Source: Aureimonas sp. AU22 (GTDB lineage Bacteria; Pseudomonadota; Alphaproteobacteria; Rhizobiales; Rhizobiaceae). From it: 58,348 bases of DNA. Below, in pieces: positions 12,701 to 32,693 of this stretch. The stretch spans positions 1 through 58,348 of the forward strand of contig NZ_BBWJ01000053.1 in the NCBI RefSeq assembly GCF_001463745.1. The letters are read 5' to 3'. The first letter of the stretch is position 1. Every line of letters starts with the position of its first letter. Both the position numbers and the translations under genes were made by a program. A model generated the notes under the pieces. It did no database searches, was not told where the DNA came from, and worked only from the letters and a program-made list of their open reading frames with translations.

Positions 12701-13675
12701 TTACAGGTTGCGAATTCGCGGCCCCGTCTCCGCCGCTGCATTCCCGCCCGCCTGCAGCAGGCGGCAGACGGCATCGAGCTGGTCGAGATCGCGGAAGGTC
12801 AGTTGCAGCGTTCCGCCCTGCCCGGCCATGTCGATCGCGACCGGCATGCCCAGCGTGCTCGTCAGAAGATCCGCCAGCGCCCGGGCGTCCGACGCTTCCG
12901 GAGCGGCCGGGGCGAAGGGCGTGCGGCGGCGCGGCGCGGTCTTCGGGGCGGCGGGGGCTTGCGGGCCGCGCGCGAGGCTTTCCGCCTCACGCACGCTGAG
13001 GCCCTCGTCCACGATGCGGCGGGCAAACGTCTCGGGATCGTCCTGCGCGACTGCCGTGCGCGCGGCGCCCGCCGACAGTTCGCCCCGCTGCACCATTTCC
13101 TTGACGCTGTCGGGAAGCTTCAGGAGGCGCAGGGTGTTGGCGACGTGGCTGCGGCTTTTCCCGACGACGTCGGCAAGGTCGGCCTGCGTGTAGCCGTGCT
13201 CGGCGATCAGCATCTCGTAGCCCATCGCCTCTTCGATCGGATCGAGGTCGGCGCGCTGGACGTTCTCGATGATCGCGATCTCAAGCGATTGCCGGTCGGA
13301 GATGTCGCGCAGGACGACTGGCACGTCCTTGAGCTCGGCCGCCTTGGCCGCACGCCAGCGCCGTTCGCCGGCCACGATCTCGAAACCGGATACGCCTTCG
13401 ACCTTGCGCACCAGGATCGGCTGGACGACGCCGTGCTGGCGCACGGAGGCGGTCAGCTCGTTCAGATCCGTCTCGTCGAAATGACGGCGCGGGTTCTTCG
13501 GGTTCGGCCGAAGTTCGGCCGCGGCGACGCGGCGCTCGCCGACCTGCACCTCGCGCGCCATGGCGGGGCCGGGAAAGGGCGTGCCGGCCCGCGAGGGCAG
13601 GGACGCGGACGCCGATCCGCCGATGAGGGACGCGAGTCCGCGACCCAACCTCTGGCGTCCCTTGTCCTCGTTCAT
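12701..13675 (-). CDS. parB: Chromosome-partitioning protein ParB
   Basis: A 324-residue centromere-binding CTP-dependent clamp. The N-terminal LGRGLASLIGG motif is the ParA-interacting end. The ParB/Srx CTP-binding domain includes LRPNPKNPRRHFDETDL and GERRWRAAK, and the HTH region (TQADLADVVGKSRSHVANTLRLL) reads parS. A variable Ala/Pro-rich linker and a dimerisation tail follow. ATG 13675 has AGGAGA upstream. It follows parA by 76 bp. A perfect parS lies 1.5 kb away inside rsmG, plus degenerate sites on the right side of the origin. Confidence 0.96.
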   Translation of the reverse strand: MNEDKGRQRLGRGLASLIGGSASASLPSRAGTPFPGPAMAREVQVGERRVAAAELRPNPKNPRRHFDETDLNELTASVRQHGVVQPILVRKVEGVSGFEIVAGERRWRAAKAAELKDVPVVLRDISDRQSLEIAIIENVQRADLDPIEEAMGYEMLIAEHGYTQADLADVVGKSRSHVANTLRLLKLPDSVKEMVQRGELSAGAARTAVAQDDPETFARRIVDEGLSVREAESLARGPQAPAAPKTAPRRRTPFAPAAPEASDARALADLLTSTLGMPVAIDMAGQGGTLQLTFRDLDQLDAVCRLLQAGGNAAAETGPRIRNL

Positions 13676-13751: not shown

Positions 13752-14561
13752 TCAGGCCGCAGCCAGATCGCGTTCGCGCTGGATGACCTCGGACGCCAGA
13801 CGGATGTAGGCCTGACTGCCCGGACACTTCATGTCGTAGAGGATCGCCGGCTTGCCGAAGCTCGGCGCTTCCGACACGCGCACGTTGCGCGGAATGATGG
13901 TCTCGTAGACATGGTCGCCCATGTAGGAGCGGACGTCGCGCACCACCTGGCTCGCCAGGTTGTTGCGCCCGTCGAACATGGTGAGGACGATACCGTGCAG
14001 CGACAGTGCCGGGTTGAGGGTGTCGCGCACCTGCTCGACGGTCTCGAGAAGCTGGCTGAGGCCCTCGAGCGCGAAGAACTCGCATTGCAGCGGCACCAGG
14101 ATCGCATCGGCGGCCGCCATGGCGTTGACGGTCAGAAGGTTCAGCGAGGGCGGGCAATCCACGAGGACGAAGTCGAAGCGCGCCGTTTCCTCAACGTGGA
14201 AATGCAGGGCGTCGCGTAGCCGGTAGGCGCGGCTGGCGGCGCCCGAGATCTCCATCTCCACTCCGAGGAGATCCATGGTCGAGGGAACCACCCAGAGATT
14301 GGGAACCGCGGTTTCCATCGCGGCCTCGGTGACCGAGGCGCTTTCCACGAGGACGTCGTAGGACGAGACGGCCCGGTCCTCGCGATCGATGCCGAGGCCC
14401 GTCGAGGCGTTGCCCTGGGGATCGAGGTCGATCAGCAGCGTGCGCTTGCCGATCGCCGCCAGCGCCGTCGCAAGGTTGATCGCCGTCGTGGTCTTGCCGA
14501 CGCCGCCCTTTTGGTTCGCAACCGTAATGACGCGCATGCGCGGGACGGAAAGCGTGTCCAT
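13752..14561 (-). CDS. parA: Chromosome-partitioning ATPase ParA
   Basis: A 269-residue deviant-Walker ATPase that positions the ParB-parS complex. VANQKGGVGKTTTAINLA contains the signature lysines; LLIDLDPQGNASTGLG (Walker A') and FDFVLVDCPPSLNLLTVNA (Walker B) follow. ATG 14561 is used; a second Met at residue 9 directly before VITVANQKGG is an alternative start. Order rsmG-parA-parB on the minus strand is standard near alphaproteobacterial origins. Confidence 0.96.
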   Translation of the reverse strand: MDTLSVPRMRVITVANQKGGVGKTTTAINLATALAAIGKRTLLIDLDPQGNASTGLGIDREDRAVSSYDVLVESASVTEAAMETAVPNLWVVPSTMDLLGVEMEISGAASRAYRLRDALHFHVEETARFDFVLVDCPPSLNLLTVNAMAAADAILVPLQCEFFALEGLSQLLETVEQVRDTLNPALSLHGIVLTMFDGRNNLASQVVRDVRSYMGDHVYETIIPRNVRVSEAPSFGKPAILYDMKCPGSQAYIRLASEVIQRERDLAAA

Positions 14562-14630: not shown

Positions 14631-15365
14631 TCAGGTGCGGCGCTCCAGCGAGCGGATCTCCAGGAGCACCGAGCCGTCTTCAACCGGCGAGGGATGCTTT
14701 ACCATGTCGAATTGCCAATGGGCAGCGGCCCCTGCAATTTCGCTCTCATGCGCGCGGCCCTTCAGGAACCAGTAGGTCGTATCCGGACCGGCATGGGGCG
14801 CAACCAGAGCGAAGAGATCGTCGAGCGATGCGAGCGCCCGCGCGCTGATCGCCTCGACGCTGGCGAGAACTTCGCCGCAGTCCTCGATTCGGCTGGCGTG
14901 GATCGTGGCGGGAAGCGCGAGTTCGCGGGCGACCGTTCGCAGGAACGCCGCCTTCTTGGCATTGCTCTCGACGAGATGCACCGCCGCCCCGTCCCGCTCC
15001 GCCAGGAGAATCGCGAGGATCAGCCCCGGCAGACCGGCACCGGAGCCAAGATCGGCCCAACGTGCCGCGCTTTTCGCCTTCGCGCCGAGAACCAGCCCGT
15101 CTTCCACATGCCGGGTCCATAGCTCGGGAATGGTCGAGGGCGAGACAAGGTTGATGCTCTTCTGCCATGTGCGCAGTAGCGCCACATAAGCGTCGAGCCG
15201 CTCCACTGTTTCACGTGAAACAGCGTGACGCGACAGCACCAGCGCCCGCTCCTCCTGCAGCTTCGCCTCCGTCGCCGCCTTGCCCATCTTCGGCTTCGGA
15301 GCCGGTGGCTTCACAAGGGAAGGCTTGGCCGGCGGCGCGCCGCGGCGATCACGCGGCGCGGGCAA
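14631..15365 (-). CDS. rsmG: 16S rRNA (guanine527-N7)-methyltransferase
   Basis: A 244-residue SAM methyltransferase acting on the 530 loop of 16S rRNA (formerly gidB). The SAM-binding motif [18 protein letters not shown] and [15 protein letters not shown] are clear. The frame opens at TTG 15365, overlapping mnmG by 17 bp; ATG 15287 ([10 protein letters not shown]) would give a more typical length of 218 residues, so the start is uncertain and the Pro/Lys-rich leader may not be translated. Codons for V-S-R-E-T contain a perfect parS site (15207-15222), a dual-use arrangement known from other bacteria. Confidence 0.93.
15207..15222. promoter_or_regulatory. parS: parS site, perfect consensus
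   Basis: TGTTTCACGTGAAACA matches the 16-bp chromosomal parS consensus at all positions. It lies inside rsmG, about 8 kb left of the putative origin and 1.5 kb from parB. Confidence 0.93.
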
Positions 15366-17232
15366 GATCTTGCTTTCGAAGCGCGACGAGAAGGAGGGCG
15401 AGGGCGGTCGGGGTCATGCCGTCGATGCGTTCGGCCTCGGCAAGGCTCGCCGGCCGTCGCTCCACGAGCTTCTGCCGCAGTTCGTTGGACAGGCCCTTGA
15501 TCCCCGCGAAGTCGAAGCCCGCCGGGAAATGCCGCGCCTCGTCGCGTTTCAGCTGAGCCTGATCGCGGCGCTGGCGCTCCAAATAGACGTCGTAGCCCGC
15601 CTCGATCTCGATCCGCTCGCGAACCGATCCCGGCATGGCGCAGAGTTCCGGCCAGACGGCGACGAGGTCGCGGAAGCCGATGTCGGCATGCGACAGGAGA
15701 AGCCAGGCCGAGCGGGTGCGCCCGTCCTGGTTGACGGGGAGGCCCTTGCGTGCCGCCTCGCTGCTCGTGAGGCTCAAGGCTTCGAGCTGCGCGCGGGCTC
15801 GATCCAACGCCGCCTCGCTGGCGGCGAAGGCTTCAACGCGCTCCGGCTCGGCAAGGCCCCATTCGATCGCCAGCAGCGTCAGGCGCCGGTCGGCATTGTC
15901 GGCGCGCAGGGACAGGCGGAACTCGGCACGGCTGGTGAACATGCGGTAGGGCTCGGTAACCCCAGTGCGCGTGAGGTCGTCCACCATGACGCCGAGATAG
16001 GCATCGGAGCGATCGATCACCACGGGTTCGCTCCCGCCCGCCCGGCGCGCCGCGTTGAGGCCGGCGAGCAGACCTTGCGCGGCCGCCTCCTCGTAGCCCG
16101 TCGTGCCGTTGATCTGTCCGGCGAGAAACAGGCCGGCCGCCGCCCGCACTTCCAGCGAACGCGTCAACTCGCGGGGATCGACATGGTCGTACTCGATCGC
16201 ATAGCCGGGCTTCAGGATCGACACGCGTTCGAGGCCCGGCAGCGAGCGGAGGAACGCCTCCTGGACGTCGGCGGGAAGCGAGGTGGACAGCCCGTTCGGA
16301 TAGACCGTCGGATCGTCCAGCCCTTCCGGCTCCAGGAAGACCTGGTGCCCGTCGCGATCGCCGAACTTGACGATCTTGTCCTCGATCGACGGGCAGTAGC
16401 GCGGCCCGACCCCCTCGATCTCGCCGGAGTAGAGTGCCGAGCGATGAAGGTTGTCGCGGATGATGCGATGGGTCTCGGGCGTGGTGCGCGTGATGCCGCA
16501 GTCGATCTGCGGATTGTCGATGCGGGTCGTGAGGTACGAGAAGGCGTAGGGCTCGGCGTCCGGTCCCTGGCGGTCGAGCCCGGCCCAGTCGATCGTCGTG
16601 CCGTCGAGACGCGCGGGCGTGCCGGTCTTCAGGCGGCCGAGCCGAAGCCCCAGCCTGCGGAGCGTCCCGGACAGGCCGAGCGAGGGCTTCTCGTCGACGC
16701 GGCCCGCCGGAATCTTGGTCGTGCCGATGTGGATGAGACCGTTGAGGAAGGTACCGGTCGTGAGAACCGCGGCGCCGCAGCGGATGCGGCGGCCATCCTC
16801 CAGCACCACGGCGCGGACCCGGTTGCCCCCGTCGAGTTCCAGGTCGAAGGCGTCGCCCTCGATCACGGCGAGGCCGCCCTGTGCGCGCACCGCCGCCTGC
16901 ACCGCCGCCTTGTAGAGCTTGCGGTCGGCCTGGGTGCGCGGTCCCCGCACGGCCGGGCCCTTGCGCCGATTGAGGAGGCGAAACTGGATTCCGCCCTGGT
17001 CTGCGGCCCGGCCCATGACCCCGCCGAGCGCGTCGATCTCGCGCACGAGATGGCCCTTGCCGATGCCCCCGATCGCTGGGTTGCAGCTCATCGCGCCGAC
17101 CGTGGCGAAGGCATGGGTGAGAAGGATCGTCGCAGCGCCCGCGCGCGCTGCCGCGCAGGCCGCTTCCACGCCCGCATGGCCGCCGCCGATCACCACGACG
17201 TCGGCGGAAGATTGCGCTGGAGACTGTGTCAT
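15349..17232 (-). CDS. mnmG: tRNA uridine-5-carboxymethylaminomethyl modification enzyme MnmG
   Basis: A 627-residue FAD protein (formerly gidA) which with MnmE makes (c)mnm5-uridine at the tRNA wobble position. Dinucleotide-binding motif [21 protein letters not shown] is at residues 13-33, then [33 protein letters not shown], and [12 protein letters not shown]. The C-terminal helical domain for MnmE binding is present. ATG 17232 is chosen because the FAD fold starts there; the frame continues upstream without similarity. It overlaps rsmG and lies 58 bp after mnmE. Confidence 0.97.
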
Positions 17233-20680: not shown

Positions 20681-21232
20681 TCAGCTGCCGCCGCGGATCG
20701 TGCCCGCCGCTAGGCCGAGCTGGCGCAGGGCGTCGTCCTGGACGGCTTCCGGCGCCTCTTCGACCGAGACGCGCACCCCGTCCTCGTCGGCACCCAGGGG
20801 CTCGAAATCGGCAAATTGCGAGGCGAGGAGGGAGGGCGGCATGTAATGCCCCTTCCGCTTCTCCATCCGCTGCCGGATCACCGCCTCGTCGGCCGTCAGC
20901 TCCACGAAGCGCACCCGCGCATCCGCCCCGCGCAGTACGTCGCGATAGCGCCGCTTCAGCGCCGAGCAGGTGATCACCGTGGACTCTCCCGCCTCCGCCT
21001 TCGACGAGATCCAGTCGCGGATCGCGGCAAGCCAGGGCGCTCGGTCCTCGTCGCCCAGGGGAATGCCGGCCGACATCTTGTCGATGTTGCGCTTGGGGTG
21101 AAACTCGTCGGCTTCCGCGAACGTCCAGCCCAGGCGCGCGGCCAGTCCCTTGGCCGTGGTCGTCTTGCCGGTGCCCGACGGACCCATGACGACGAGGCAG
21201 ACGGGACGGGCTGGCGATGCGGCTTGCGACAA
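20681..21232 (-). CDS. Gluconokinase (GntK/IdnK type)
   Basis: A 183-residue P-loop kinase phosphorylating D-gluconate to 6-phosphogluconate. VVMGPSGTGKTTTAKGLA (Walker A), EADEFHPKRNIDKMSAGIPLGDEDRAPWL (substrate site) and VITCSALKRRYRDVLRG are hallmarks of the family. The apparent start is TTG 21232 with GGAG 8 nt upstream; no ATG precedes the P-loop at a sensible distance. No gluconate transporter or edd/eda is nearby. It lies 66 bp after hemJ on the same strand, possibly co-transcribed. Confidence 0.92.
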   Translation of the reverse strand: MSQAASPARPVCLVVMGPSGTGKTTTAKGLAARLGWTFAEADEFHPKRNIDKMSAGIPLGDEDRAPWLAAIRDWISSKAEAGESTVITCSALKRRYRDVLRGADARVRFVELTADEAVIRQRMEKRKGHYMPPSLLASQFADFEPLGADEDGVRVSVEEAPEAVQDDALRQLGLAAGTIRGGS

Positions 21233-21298
21233 GAACTCGGCTCCGGCGAGAAACGATCCGCGTAAGATCGCCCCGCCGGCGCCAAAGGCAAGCCGCGG

Positions 21299-21826
21299 TC
21301 AGAAGGGCTTCACGACCACCAGGATCACGATCACCACGAGAAGCAGCGCCGGCACCTCGTTCACCACGCGCCAGTGCCGGCTCGTCTTGGTGATCTCGTC
21401 GCGCTCCAGCCGCTTGCGCGACGCCGAAAGATACCCGTGCACGCCCGACAGGAGCACCACGAACAGGAGCTTGGCATGCAGCCAGCCGCCCCGGAACGCG
21501 AAGACCTCGATCGCCAGCCACAGGCCCGCCACCCAGGTCACGATCATCGCGGGGTTGATGATGCCGCGCATCAGGCGCCGCTCCATCACCTTGAAGGTCT
21601 CGGCCTCGCGCGAGCCCACCCCCGCCTCGGTGTGGTAGACGAACAGCCGCGGCAGGTAGAGCATCCCCGCCATCCAGGAGATCACCGCCAGGATGTGCAG
21701 GCTCTTCACCCAGAGCTGAGCCTCCAACGGCACGAGACCGAACAAGACCACCGCCAGCACCGCGCCGCCGGCCAGCGAATAGAGCAGCGAACGGTCCTTC
21801 TGGGCAGGCTTCGGCTGAACGGTCAT
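21299..21826 (-). CDS. hemJ: Protoporphyrinogen IX oxidase HemJ
   Basis: A 175-residue membrane protein with about four helices: SLLYSLAGGAVLAVVLFGLV, LHILAVISWMAGMLYLPRLFVYH (conserved His and Arg/Lys positions), PAMIVTWVAGLWLAIEV and a C-terminal PALLLVVIVILVVV. The family oxidises protoporphyrinogen IX in bacteria lacking HemG/HemY and binds haem. The rho-hemJ-hemE neighbourhood is typical of alphaproteobacteria. ATG 21826 starts the conserved domain. Confidence 0.92.
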   Translation of the reverse strand: MTVQPKPAQKDRSLLYSLAGGAVLAVVLFGLVPLEAQLWVKSLHILAVISWMAGMLYLPRLFVYHTEAGVGSREAETFKVMERRLMRGIINPAMIVTWVAGLWLAIEVFAFRGGWLHAKLLFVVLLSGVHGYLSASRKRLERDEITKTSRHWRVVNEVPALLLVVIVILVVVKPF

Positions 21827-21893
21827 GGCATCCTCCGGACGATCGCCCCCCTGCCTAGTCGAGAACCGCTCCAAACGGAAGCGGCGGGGGTGA

Positions 21894-22076: not shown

Positions 22077-23099
22077 TCACCCCCGCCGCACCCGTTCGAT
22101 CAGGTGCTCGACATGGGCGATCGGCGCGTCCGGAGTGATGCCGTGGCCGAGGTTGAAGACCAGCGGGCCGCCGCCGAGGTGCTGGAGGATGGCGTCGATA
22201 CCCTCGTCGAGGGCCCGGCCGCCGGCGATGAGGCGCAAGGGGTCGAGATTGCCCTGGACGGGCCCGGTCTTCTGGAGTTCGGCGGCGAAGCGGAAGGGGA
22301 CGGACCAGTCGAGGCCGACGGCGTCGACGCCGGTCCCGGCGCGGTAGGCGGGCAGGAGGGGACCGGCGCCCTTCGGGAAGCCGATGATGCGGGCACCCGG
22401 CACGCTCGCGCGCACGCGCTCGACGATGCGGCGGGTCGGCCCGATCGAGAAGCGCTCGAAGCTCAGCTCGTCGAGGACGCCGGCCCAGGAATCGAAGATC
22501 TGGACGCAGTCGGCACCGGCCTGGAGCTGGCGGACGAGGTAGTCCGCGCTCATCTCGGCGAGGAGGGCGAGGAGTTCGTCCATCGCCTCCGGGTGCTGGT
22601 AGCCGAACCGGCGGGCAGGGGCCTGGTCGGGCGTGCCGTGGCCGGCGATCATGTAGGTGGCCACCGTCCAGGGCGCGCCGCAGAAGCCGATGAGGGTGGT
22701 CTCATCAGGCAGTTCGGCGCGCAGGCGGGCGACGGTGGCGATCACGGGCGCGAGGTGGGTCTCCGCATTGCCGGGGTCGAGGTTCGCGATCTCGTGCGGG
22801 GCGATCGGATCCATCTGCGGCCCTTCGCCTTGCACGAAGCGCACGTTGCGGCGGAGCGCGTCGGGGATCACGAGGATGTCGGAGAACAGGATCGAGGCGT
22901 CGAAGCCGAAGCGGCGGATCGGCTGCAGCGTGACCTCGGTGGCGAGATCGGGATTGTAGCAGAGGTCGAGGAAGCCGCCGGCGCGCGCGCGGGTCTCGCG
23001 ATATTCGGGAAGATAGCGGCCGGCCTGGCGCATCAGCCAGATGGGAGGCGGATACACGGTCTCGCCGGCGAGGACGCGCATCAGCTTACGCTCGTGCAT
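22077..23099 (-). CDS. hemE: Uroporphyrinogen III decarboxylase
   Basis: A 340-residue (beta/alpha)8 enzyme that decarboxylates the four acetates of uroporphyrinogen III to give coproporphyrinogen [19 protein letters not shown] (substrate-binding Arg and the N-terminal signature), [11 protein letters not shown] with the catalytic Asp, [13 protein letters not shown] and [12 protein letters not shown] are all present. ATG 23099 ([10 protein letters not shown]) is chosen; the frame extends into the origin region without similarity. It is the first leftward gene beside the putative origin, as in Caulobacter and rhizobia. Confidence 0.97.
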
Positions 23100-23240
23100 G
23101 GAACACCTTTCGCGGCCGGAGGGCCGTGGGGGAGGGATGCCCGGCGTCCAGCCTCGCGTCCAGTCCTTTTCGAAGCCGGCGTGCGGAAGGCGCCGGTGAT
23201 CGATCAGATAGACGCTGAGGGTTTTCCCGTCCGCCCCTCT

Positions 23241-23283
23241 TAGAAAAGAAATCCATGAATCTAAGATTCTGATTCTATGAGTC
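23241..23283. promoter_or_regulatory. AT-rich core with four GANTC methylation sites
   Basis: The most AT-rich stretch noticed in the window contains GAATC (23257), GATTC (23265), GATTC (23271) and GAGTC (23279) within 27 bp. It is a candidate duplex-unwinding element under CcrM-type methylation. Confidence 0.55.
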
Positions 23284-23470
23284 GGTGGATCATGGGAATT
23301 CACAGAACCCGTCCGCGGCGGCGCAAAACGACGGGCGAAACGGCGTTCACCCGTGCGGCCAAAAAGCGGCAGCGGCGTCAATCATTTGGGCGGGATCGTG
23401 TCGGGAAGGGGCGGGTTCGCGTCCCCGCAATTCACAAACGCCGGGCCACAGGCCGGTCGCTTCCATGAAC

Positions 23471-23479
23471 TGTGGATGA
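23471..23479 (-). promoter_or_regulatory. DnaA-box-like 9-mer
   Basis: TGTGGATGA on the plus strand reads TCATCCACA on the minus strand, one mismatch from TTATCCACA. It is the best single DnaA-box candidate in the hemE-maf gap. Confidence 0.5.
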
Positions 23480-23705
23480 CGGCGGAGTTTTCAAAAGGGC
23501 AGAAATCGCTTGGAGGCGCCGGGCCCCGCCCGTCCCCTGATTCCCACAAGGGCGCCGGAATCACGGGGGTGGCGCTCGCATCCGCTTGCGCTGCTCCCGA
23601 GAATCGAGTCCGCCCGATGCCGGGGCTTCCCGCCTTTCGCTGGCTCTAATAGACAATGCGAACTTGAACAAAGATTTAAGGACGCGCGGCAAGGCGCGGG
23701 AAAGG

Positions 23706-24311
23706 ATGATCGCGATGGGAGGACTGGTCCTCGCCTCGGGAAGCCGTCACCGTCAGGCGCTGCTCGCCGCGGCCGGCATCGATGCGCAGAGCGATCCCTC
23801 GACCCTCGACGAGCGTCTGGTGGAGGCGCCGCTGAAGGAGACGGGCGCGACGCCGGACGAGGTCGCGCTCGTGCTGGCGGAGGCCAAGGCGGTCGATGTC
23901 TCCGAGCGCCGGCCGGGCATGCTGGTGATCGGCGCGGACCAGGTCCTGTCGGTGGACGACGAGATCCTGCACAAGCCGGCCGACATGGAAGCCGCGCGCC
24001 GCACGCTCCTGAAGCTGTCGGGCCGGACCCATCATCTCGATAGCGCCGTGGTGCTGGCGCGGGACGGGGAGGCGGTCTGGCGTCATGTCTCGCGCGCCTC
24101 CATCACCTTCCGCACCCTCACGCCGGCGGAGATCGGCCGCTATCTCGCGGCGGCCGGCGACGCGGTGCTGACCAGCGTCGGCGCCTATCAGGTCGAAGGG
24201 CGGGGCTTGCAGCTGATGGAGCGGATCGAGGGCGACCTCTTCACCGTCATCGGCCTGCCGATGCTGCCCCTGATCGCGGAGCTGCGAGCCCGGGGCGCGC
24301 TGGATGACTGA
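23706..24311 (+). CDS. maf: Maf-like nucleoside triphosphate pyrophosphatase
   Basis: A 201-residue Maf/Ham1-superfamily protein. [20 protein letters not shown] is the N-terminal Maf signature, and [18 protein letters not shown] and [21 protein letters not shown] (the catalytic segment) follow. Members hydrolyse non-canonical or regular NTPs (dTTP, UTP, m7GTP), with possible roles in cell-division arrest. ATG 23706 with GGAAAGG upstream is chosen; MGGLVL three codons on is an alternative. First rightward gene next to the origin; its last codons overlap aroE by 8 bp. Confidence 0.93.
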
Positions 24312-27494: not shown

Positions 27495-28007
27495 TCAGAC
27501 CGTCGGCTGTACCTGCGCCTTGGCCCGTTCCTCGGCGAGGCGCTGGGTGAACAGGGCGGCGAAGTCGATCGGGTCGATCATCAGCGGCGGGAAGCCGGCG
27601 TTGCGTGTGACGTCGGCGACGATCTGGCGCGCGAAGGGGAAGATCAAGCGCGGGCACTCGATGAAGAGGACCGGGAGCATGTGCTCCTGCGGGAATCCTT
27701 CGAGGCGGAACACGCCGCCATATTCGAGTTCCACGTGAAACAGCGTGTCGGCCCCCTCGCCGGCGCGCGCGTTCAGCGTCAGGCGCACGTCGTATTCGTG
27801 CTCGGCACCCTGGACCGGGTTGGCACCGACATTGACGCCGATGTTGATGCCCGGCGCGCGCGCCTGGCCGCGCAGCGATCCCGGCGCGCCGGGGCTCTCG
27901 AAGGAGAGGTCCTTGATGTACTGGGCAAGGATGTTGAGCGAGGGCTGGGCCCCCTGGCTCGCACCGTTGGCGCCGTTCGCGCCGTTGGTCTGGTCGATCT
28001 GGGACAT
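27495..28007 (-). CDS. secB: Protein-export chaperone SecB
   Basis: A 170-residue tetrameric chaperone keeping preproteins unfolded for SecA. After a low-complexity N-terminus rich in Asn, Gly and Ala it has [16 protein letters not shown], the canonical SecB opening, then [13 protein letters not shown] and [34 protein letters not shown] 28007 has GAGGAG upstream. A parS-like sequence (27727-27742) covers the FHVEL codons. Length is slightly above the usual 150-160 because of the N-terminal tail. Confidence 0.96.
27727..27742. promoter_or_regulatory. parS: parS-like site, 14 of 16
   Basis: AGTTCCACGTGAAACA differs from the parS consensus at positions 1 and 5. It lies within secB, about 4.5 kb right of the putative origin. 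It could be a weak ParB site or simply F-H-V codons. Confidence 0.5.
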
Positions 28008-32677: not shown

Positions 32678-32693
32678 TGCTTCACGTGAAACA
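32678..32693. promoter_or_regulatory. parS: parS-like site, 15 of 16
   Basis: TGCTTCACGTGAAACA differs from consensus only at position 3. It lies between the DUF1402 and Lrp genes, about 9.4 kb right of the putative origin, so coding constraint does not explain it. Confidence 0.8.

What the first reader, a model, noticed from the sequence alone, without database searches (positions are those of the whole stretch)
23100..23705. Likely chromosomal replication origin between hemE and maf
Seen: a 606-bp non-coding gap flanked by outward-pointing housekeeping genes, with a 40-bp core of only 11 G/C bases, the inverted repeat GAATCT-A-AGATTC, one 8-of-9 DnaA box and weaker ones. Known: alphaproteobacterial origins (Caulobacter, rhizobia) lie beside hemE, with parAB nearby. 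Inference: this is oriC, and its DnaA boxes are mostly degenerate.
Basis: partly seen in the sequence, partly recalled or inferred. Interest (0 to 1): 0.75.

Follow-up and report, generated by a model that had tools for sequence, protein, structure and literature searches.

The report
Chromosome replication origin beside hemE
This 606-base gap is very probably the place where an Aureimonas chromosome starts copying itself; it is the ordinary origin of its bacterial class, with one usual neighbouring gene missing and a DNA-methylation site at the point where the strands are expected to open.

Summary
In three single-contig Aureimonas genomes, chromosome-wide strand bias (KOPS, GC skew) switches at or within about 18 kb of this gap, not at dnaA, 0.25-1.04 Mb away. 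parAB and a perfect parS lie 8-10 kb to the left, two one-mismatch parS to the right. The gap holds the most A+T-rich 40 bases of the window. Beside them is an element kept in 97 of 97 hemE gaps from its nearest relatives (but not recognisable in most of 40 more distant ones): on the minus strand a weak DnaA box, a 6-base spacer and four DnaA-trios (TAG AAT CAG AAT), matching the published 'basal unwinding system'. Lineage features: the usual flanking gene PPSR/COG1806 is missing while the origin stayed; none of 29 PPSR-less gaps has a perfect DnaA box (41 of 68 with PPSR do); the spacer carries a CcrM site (GANTC) in 93 of 97. Published CcrM mutants mostly argue against a methylation switch. 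A new member of a known kind; function untested.

The parts
22077..23099 (-). hemE, uroporphyrinogen decarboxylase: left flank
   Evidence: NCBIfam TIGR01464, 396 bits over cut-off
23100..23705 (.). oriC: intergenic gap
   Evidence: DNA match at the hemE-maf gap in 21 of 21 genomes of the genus including its own, full length in 6, short blocks in 15, weakest E 0.002; chromosome strand switch at or near the equivalent gap in 3 relatives
23238..23280 (.). A+T-rich core, probable duplex-unwinding element
   Evidence: lowest-GC 40-mers of the window, 11 of 40
23266..23277 (-). four DnaA-trios, TAG AAT CAG AAT read 5'-3' on the minus strand
   Evidence: all four central A in 97 of 97 gaps; the anchor motif used covers these positions; also visible in the alignment made without that anchor; sequence checked
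23278..23283 (.). 6-base box-trio spacer with CcrM site GAGTC at 23279-23283
   Evidence: GAGTC 87 or GACTC 6 of 97 gaps; the 4 without are all Aureimonas loci, L096 and L099-L101
23284..23292 (-). DnaA box TGATCCACC, 2 mismatches to TTATCCACA, next to the trios
   Evidence: its ATCCACC part is conserved in 21 Aureimonas genomes, its first two bases are not
23293..23301 (-). possible second, weak DnaA box GAATTCCCA (4 mismatches, counted by hand)
   Evidence: sequence; equivalent ATCC columns mostly conserved
23429..23436 (+). AATTCACA, also at 23297-23304; its TTCACA part is conserved in the genus
23471..23479 (-). best DnaA box TCATCCACA (1 mismatch); on the plus strand TGTGGA is conserved into Rhizobium and Brucella
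23530..23551 (+). conserved block with TGATTCCCACAAGG, aligned with TATCAACAGG just before the probable PPSR start of relatives (start codon inferred)
   Evidence: 7 of 22 columns at least 95% identical
23583..23612 (+). CTTGC...GAATCGAGTCC block conserved in Aurantimonadaceae loci; possible maf promoter with two GANTC sites (inferred)
   Evidence: 10 of 30 columns at least 95% identical; seen; no sigma-70 consensus match found
23706..24311 (+). maf-like gene: right flank
   Evidence: NF002690, 280 bits over cut-off
12701..13675 (-). parB
   Evidence: Pfam ParB_N, HTH_ParB, ParB_C
13752..14561 (-). parA
   Evidence: Pfam AAA_31, CbiA
15207..15222 (+). perfect parS TGTTTCACGTGAAACA
   Evidence: consensus recalled
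27727..27742 (+). parS-like, 1 mismatch
32678..32693 (+). parS-like, 1 mismatch

Best explanation
The gap is the single DnaA-dependent chromosomal origin. DnaA would bind the box TGATCCACC at 23284-23292 (helped by the neighbouring weak box and the boxes to the right, chiefly 23471-23479), extend as an ATP-DnaA filament across the spacer onto the minus-strand trios at 23266-23277, and open the A+T-rich stretch 23238-23280 towards hemE. The helicase would load there and forks run both ways. ParB on the parS sites would then segregate the new origins. Shown: location of the strand switch in relatives, conservation and architecture. Inferred: DnaA binding, opening, initiation and singleness in this organism.
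For: KOPS strand-bias fit on sampled stretches (164, 117 and 109 sites): best origin 18 kb from the gap in G003, 4 kb in G004, and a range including the gap in G006. Score with origin at the gap against at dnaA: 106 v 34, 95 v 59, 73 v 45 (best anywhere 112, 99, 77); Fisher p 1e-16, 4e-19, 5e-12 with the terminus fitted. GC skew agrees, more noisily. dnaA is at contig position about 1 in these genomes, 0.25-1.04 Mb away. The pattern CACNGANTCNNAGAANNAGAA with up to 1 mismatch occurs once in the whole own genome, exactly at the gap, and without mismatch at the gap in 17 of 21 genomes of the genus; elsewhere in those 21 genomes it has 2 one-mismatch hits, and the backward-read control has 1. Block I has 21 of 38 columns at least 95% identical, against 6 of 99 fourfold sites of hemE in the same 21 genomes. 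Core motif: at most 4 mismatches in 97 of 97 gaps of near relatives; 1 of 291 shuffled gaps reached 4. parABS nearby. Caulobacter and Rickettsia origins lie between hemE and COG1806 (PMC1914354, passages). BUS rule met: box at most 2 mismatches, spacer 0-16, at least 3 NAN trios (PMC8287927, passages).
Against: DnaA-box number alone is not above chance. The BUS rule alone is not specific: 4 of 38 boxes in the window have at least 3 trios, and one at 16728, in what looks by eye like mnmG, has 4 and a better box. In the own window KOPS orientation is clear only right of 23100 (10 + / 3 -), not left of it (6 + / 6 -). G003's best switch is about 18 kb left of the gap. Four of 21 genus genomes, G004 among them, lack the pattern at up to 1 mismatch because their spacer differs. 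In 40 more distant hemE gaps the core is matched only with 4-8 mismatches, the shuffle range being 4-9. No CtrA (TTAA-N7-TTAA) or strict IHF consensus site. The own genome is an 85-contig draft, so its own skew could not be tested.
Confidence: 0.94

Rival explanations
1. The gap is only a divergent promoter region for hemE and maf, and its conserved blocks are transcription-factor sites; the origin lies elsewhere within tens of kilobases.
For: The gap separates divergent genes, and block VII (23583-23612) looks promoter-like and is conserved. Strand-bias resolution is only about 5-20 kb.
Against: The blocks hold DnaA-box, spacer and trio order and persist where the flanking gene differs (PPSR or maf), so they do not follow the downstream gene. 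The block I pattern is unique in the own genome. The locus is in the position of known alphaproteobacterial origins.
Confidence: 0.04
2. The gap encodes a CcnA-like regulatory RNA, as at the Caulobacter origin, and that explains the conservation.
For: In C. crescentus the ncRNA CcnA is transcribed from within the origin (PMC8959179, passages).
Against: No Rfam match at E up to 1 in 23000-23800; whether CcnA is in Rfam was not checked. The same paper says no clear CcnA homologue was detected in S. meliloti. It would add to, not replace, the origin.
Confidence: 0.03
3. The origin is at dnaA on another contig (C51).
For: dnaA is a frequent origin neighbour in bacteria (PMC10225481, passages); dnaA of this genome is on C51.
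Against: No strand switch near dnaA in three single-contig relatives.
Confidence: 0.01

Closest known systems
Caulobacter crescentus Cori (hemE-COG1806)
   Same: Gap beside hemE, A+T-rich stretch, weak DnaA boxes, GANTC sites in the origin (passages in PMC1914354, PMC8959179, PMC3973325)
   Different: COG1806/PPSR is absent here and maf is the neighbour; no CtrA sites found
Rhizobium, Brucella and Phyllobacterium hemE-PPSR origin gaps
   Same: Alignable blocks in the same order: trio-spacer-box, TGTGGA-type boxes, TATCAACAGG-type block
   Different: They keep PPSR, and 41 of 68 PPSR-bearing gaps hold a perfect TTATCCACA against 0 of 29 PPSR-less gaps; here the best box has one mismatch and the gap carries an additional right-hand block VII
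Basal unwinding system (BUS) of Bacillus subtilis and others
   Same: DnaA box, short spacer, DnaA-trios; here beside an A+T-rich stretch
   Different: Boxes deviate more from TTATCCACA; the spacer contains a GANTC methylation site

Membership tests
Alphaproteobacterial hemE-linked oriC | Intergenic region beside hemE | tested here: met
Alphaproteobacterial hemE-linked oriC | Chromosome-wide strand-bias switch at the gap | tested here: met
   met within about 18 kb in 3 of 3 single-contig relatives sampled; not testable in the own draft
Alphaproteobacterial hemE-linked oriC | A+T content above the genome's | tested here: met
   gap GC 0.624 v window 0.694; lowest 40-mer of the window
Alphaproteobacterial hemE-linked oriC | DnaA boxes | tested here: met
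   one box at 1 mismatch, one at 2; number not above chance, conservation of their cores is seen
Alphaproteobacterial hemE-linked oriC | DnaA binding and autonomous replication | not testable with these tools
   needs ChIP or footprinting and a replication assay
Caulobacter-type, CtrA-controlled Cori | COG1806/PPSR on the other side | tested here: not met
   PF03618 in 0 of 1 own genome; absent from the window's locus and 12 others of 81
Caulobacter-type, CtrA-controlled Cori | CtrA sites TTAA-N7-TTAA | tested here: not met
   none in the gap; so not filed as this subtype
Caulobacter-type, CtrA-controlled Cori | IHF site | tested here: inconclusive
   no strict consensus match; consensus recalled and degenerate
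Basal unwinding system | DnaA box at most 2 mismatches, spacer 0-16, at least 3 NAN trios | tested here: met
   TGATCCACC, spacer 6, 4 trios; rule from PMC8287927; 4 of 38 window boxes pass it, so it is not specific
Basal unwinding system | DnaA- and trio-dependent strand opening | not testable with these tools
   needs purified DnaA and a strand-separation assay

The most novel reading that the evidence does not exclude
In the lineage of Rhizobium, Brucella and Aurantimonas a CcrM site (GANTC) has been fixed inside the spacer between the trio-proximal DnaA box and the DnaA-trios. Its methylation state (hemimethylated just after the fork passes) would then modulate DnaA filament extension onto the trios: an alphaproteobacterial counterpart of Dam/SeqA control acting at the unwinding step.
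Probability: 0.12. Interest if true: 0.65.

Novelty: new member of a known kind. Interest (0 to 1): 0.3.

Why it matters
It places the origin of Aureimonas, a genus noted for plasmid-borne rRNA operons, and shows that the three single-contig relatives, numbered from dnaA, do not start at their origin. It shows a box-spacer-trio element conserved among near relatives from Aureimonas to Rhizobium and Brucella, and a natural case in which a classical origin-flanking gene is missing while the origin stayed. The methylation site in the spacer poses a specific, testable question about how alphaproteobacteria time origin opening.

Tried and rejected
Inverted repeat GAATCTAAGATTC as a functional element: rejected, the left half is not conserved. 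DnaA-box clustering as independent evidence: not above chance at 2 mismatches. GC skew inside the window: too noisy to place a switch. CtrA and IHF sites: none by consensus. Rfam: nothing. tRNA: none in the window. GANTC at the box-trio junction as a general feature: not supported for the rest of the order and class. Several show a box followed by A-centred triplets (read by eye, not scored). A simple CcrM switch of initiation: weakened by PMC3973325 (one section read: delta-ccrM Caulobacter has a DNA-content profile like wild type) and PMC11514494 (passages: CcrM depletion in Agrobacterium affects ori2, effect on ori1 counts insignificant). In its favour the same section of PMC3973325 recalls that CcrM over-expression gives extra chromosome copies. 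16S search of the own genome found nothing, but the same search did not ring in the Caulobacter control either, so no conclusion. A DNA search with other intergenic regions as control was considered and not run; fourfold sites of hemE served as control.

Of these 80 loci, L041 and L075 had neither a maf nor a PPSR match and were left out, and L002 and L009 were removed as identical to L082 and L093; 76 were used, plus 21 genus genomes, giving 97. Core-motif mismatches were counted against a motif derived from the same sequences.

Full report
What was checked. The gap is real: 606 bp, GC 0.624 against 0.694 for the window, between hemE on the minus strand and a maf-like gene on the plus strand. 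The window is contig 53 of an 85-contig, 4.63-Mb genome. The genus is Aureimonas, judged from a 92%-identical hemE in Aureimonas sp. Leaf324, whose locus recurs as one of the 20 other genomes of the same genus (G009). The A+T-rich core is the lowest-GC 40-mer of the window.

Where the chromosome starts. The own genome is a draft, so I used relatives held as single contigs (G003, G004, G006), sampling 20 stretches of 20 kb each plus 200 kb around the gap. KOPS (GGGNAGGG, recalled consensus) and, more noisily, GC skew change sign near the hemE-maf gap and near the antipode. A two-breakpoint fit to KOPS puts the origin 18 kb left of the gap in G003, 4 kb right in G004, and across 250-275 kb in G006, where the gap is at 254.5 kb. 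Placing the origin at dnaA fits much worse (scores 34, 59 and 45 against 106, 95 and 73 at the gap). dnaA sits at contig position about 1 in these genomes. In the own window the right side is biased as expected (10 + / 3 -) and the left side is not (6 + / 6 -).

Conservation. The gap has a match in 21 of 21 genomes of the genus, its own included, at the hemE-maf gap (full length in 6, short blocks in 15, weakest E 0.002), and in 0 of 20 genomes outside the genus by BLAST. Alignment of the 21 shows short conserved blocks separated by variable DNA. Block I (23264-23301) has 21 of 38 columns at least 95% identical, against 6 of 99 fourfold-degenerate hemE sites and 0 of 101, 0 of 111 and 0 of 88 columns in three other parts of the gap. 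Several blocks align with the hemE-PPSR gaps of Rhizobium, Brucella, Hoeflea, Phyllobacterium and others (28 selected sequences).

The unwinding element. Read on the minus strand, block I is TGATCCACC-GACTCA-TAG-AAT-CAG-AAT: a DnaA box with two mismatches, a 6-base spacer and four triplets with central A. In 97 hemE gaps of near relatives (29 without PPSR, 68 with) the core is present with at most 4 mismatches, and all four central A are present in 97 of 97. The motif was derived from these sequences, so the count is descriptive; the alignment, made without it, shows the same, and 1 of 291 shuffled gaps reached 4 mismatches. At up to one mismatch the pattern occurs once in the own genome; 4 of 21 genus genomes lack it because of a changed spacer. 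In 40 more distant gaps the core is not recognisable as such (4-8 mismatches). The element fits the published basal unwinding system (PMC8287927, abstract and passages), but that rule alone is weak: 4 of 38 window boxes pass with at least 3 trios. The A+T-rich stretch lies just beyond the trios, where that model predicts opening. No gap of the 29 without PPSR has a perfect TTATCCACA, against 41 of 68 with PPSR: the boxes have decayed in this branch.

Missing neighbour. In Caulobacter and Rickettsia the origin lies between hemE and COG1806 (PMC1914354, passages). COG1806/PPSR (PF03618, confirmed for the Rhizobium copy) was found in 68 of 81 loci L001-L081 and in 33 of 40 further order and class gaps, within 1.2 kb of hemE. 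It is absent from the own genome and from this locus in all Aureimonas, Aurantimonas, Jiella and Mangrovicella loci examined (their whole genomes were not searched). Where it is absent, 427-1069 bp still separate hemE and maf. The simplest inference is deletion of PPSR with the origin kept.

Methylation sites. The gap has 8 GANTC sites, the most in any 606-bp stretch of the window (mean 0.59; shuffles of the gap itself mean 3.37, P 0.016). The site in the box-trio spacer is GAGTC in 87 and GACTC in 6 of 97; the 4 without are Aureimonas loci L096 and L099-L101, perhaps one group (no tree made). The G/C exchange at the free N (L004 Mangrovicella, L006 Aurantimonas, L091 Aureimonas, L015 Hoeflea, L078 Aquamicrobium, L079 Corticibacterium) with GA and TC kept is what constraint for a methylation site would look like. 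The genome encodes a CcrM-type protein (N6_N4_Mtase plus RAMA) and GcrA. Against a switch: delta-ccrM Caulobacter has a DNA-content profile like wild type (PMC3973325, one section read), and CcrM effects in Agrobacterium fall on ori2 (PMC11514494, passages). For it: the same section of PMC3973325 recalls that CcrM over-expression gives extra chromosome copies. No held paper contains both 'GANTC' and 'DnaA-trio', nor 'oriC', 'DnaA-trio' and 'Rhizobiales' together; the library lacks most subscription papers, so this is not proof of novelty.

Segregation. parA and parB lie 8.5-10.4 kb left of the gap, with a perfect parS at 15207 and one-mismatch sites at 27727 and 32678 on the other side.

Verdict. 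A chromosomal origin of a known kind, located with high confidence by comparison; mechanism inferred from architecture.

Noticed in passing
23583-23612: Block CTTGC...GAATCGAGTCC, conserved in Aurantimonadaceae loci, possibly the maf-aroE-coaE-dnaQ promoter that took over after PPSR loss, with two CcrM sites; the second varies GAGTC/GAATC with GA and TC kept.
   Followed up: partly
23100-23705 and 96 relatives: Perfect DnaA boxes are absent from 29 of 29 gaps without PPSR but present in 41 of 68 with PPSR; whether DnaA specificity changed in this branch was not examined.
   Followed up: partly
L072: A record titled Bacillus subtilis strain SK6B4 (JAHREI010000001.1) carries an alphaproteobacterial hemE-PPSR-maf locus: mislabelled or contaminated record.
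   Followed up: no
whole genome G000: No 16S rRNA match in the draft; some Aureimonas carry their sole rRNA operon on a plasmid (PMC10645730, start of abstract in the listing), but the search also did not ring in the Caulobacter control.
   Followed up: partly
20681-21874: A gluconokinase and hemJ lie between hemE and rho.
   Followed up: no
L023, L058: Two loci titled Rhizobiaceae MAG and Pararhizobium mangrovi also lack PPSR between hemE and maf, perhaps separate losses.
   Followed up: no
G084, G066, G058, G029, G078, G104, G118: Seven of 40 further order and class genomes show no PPSR in the 1.2 kb upstream of hemE.
   Followed up: no
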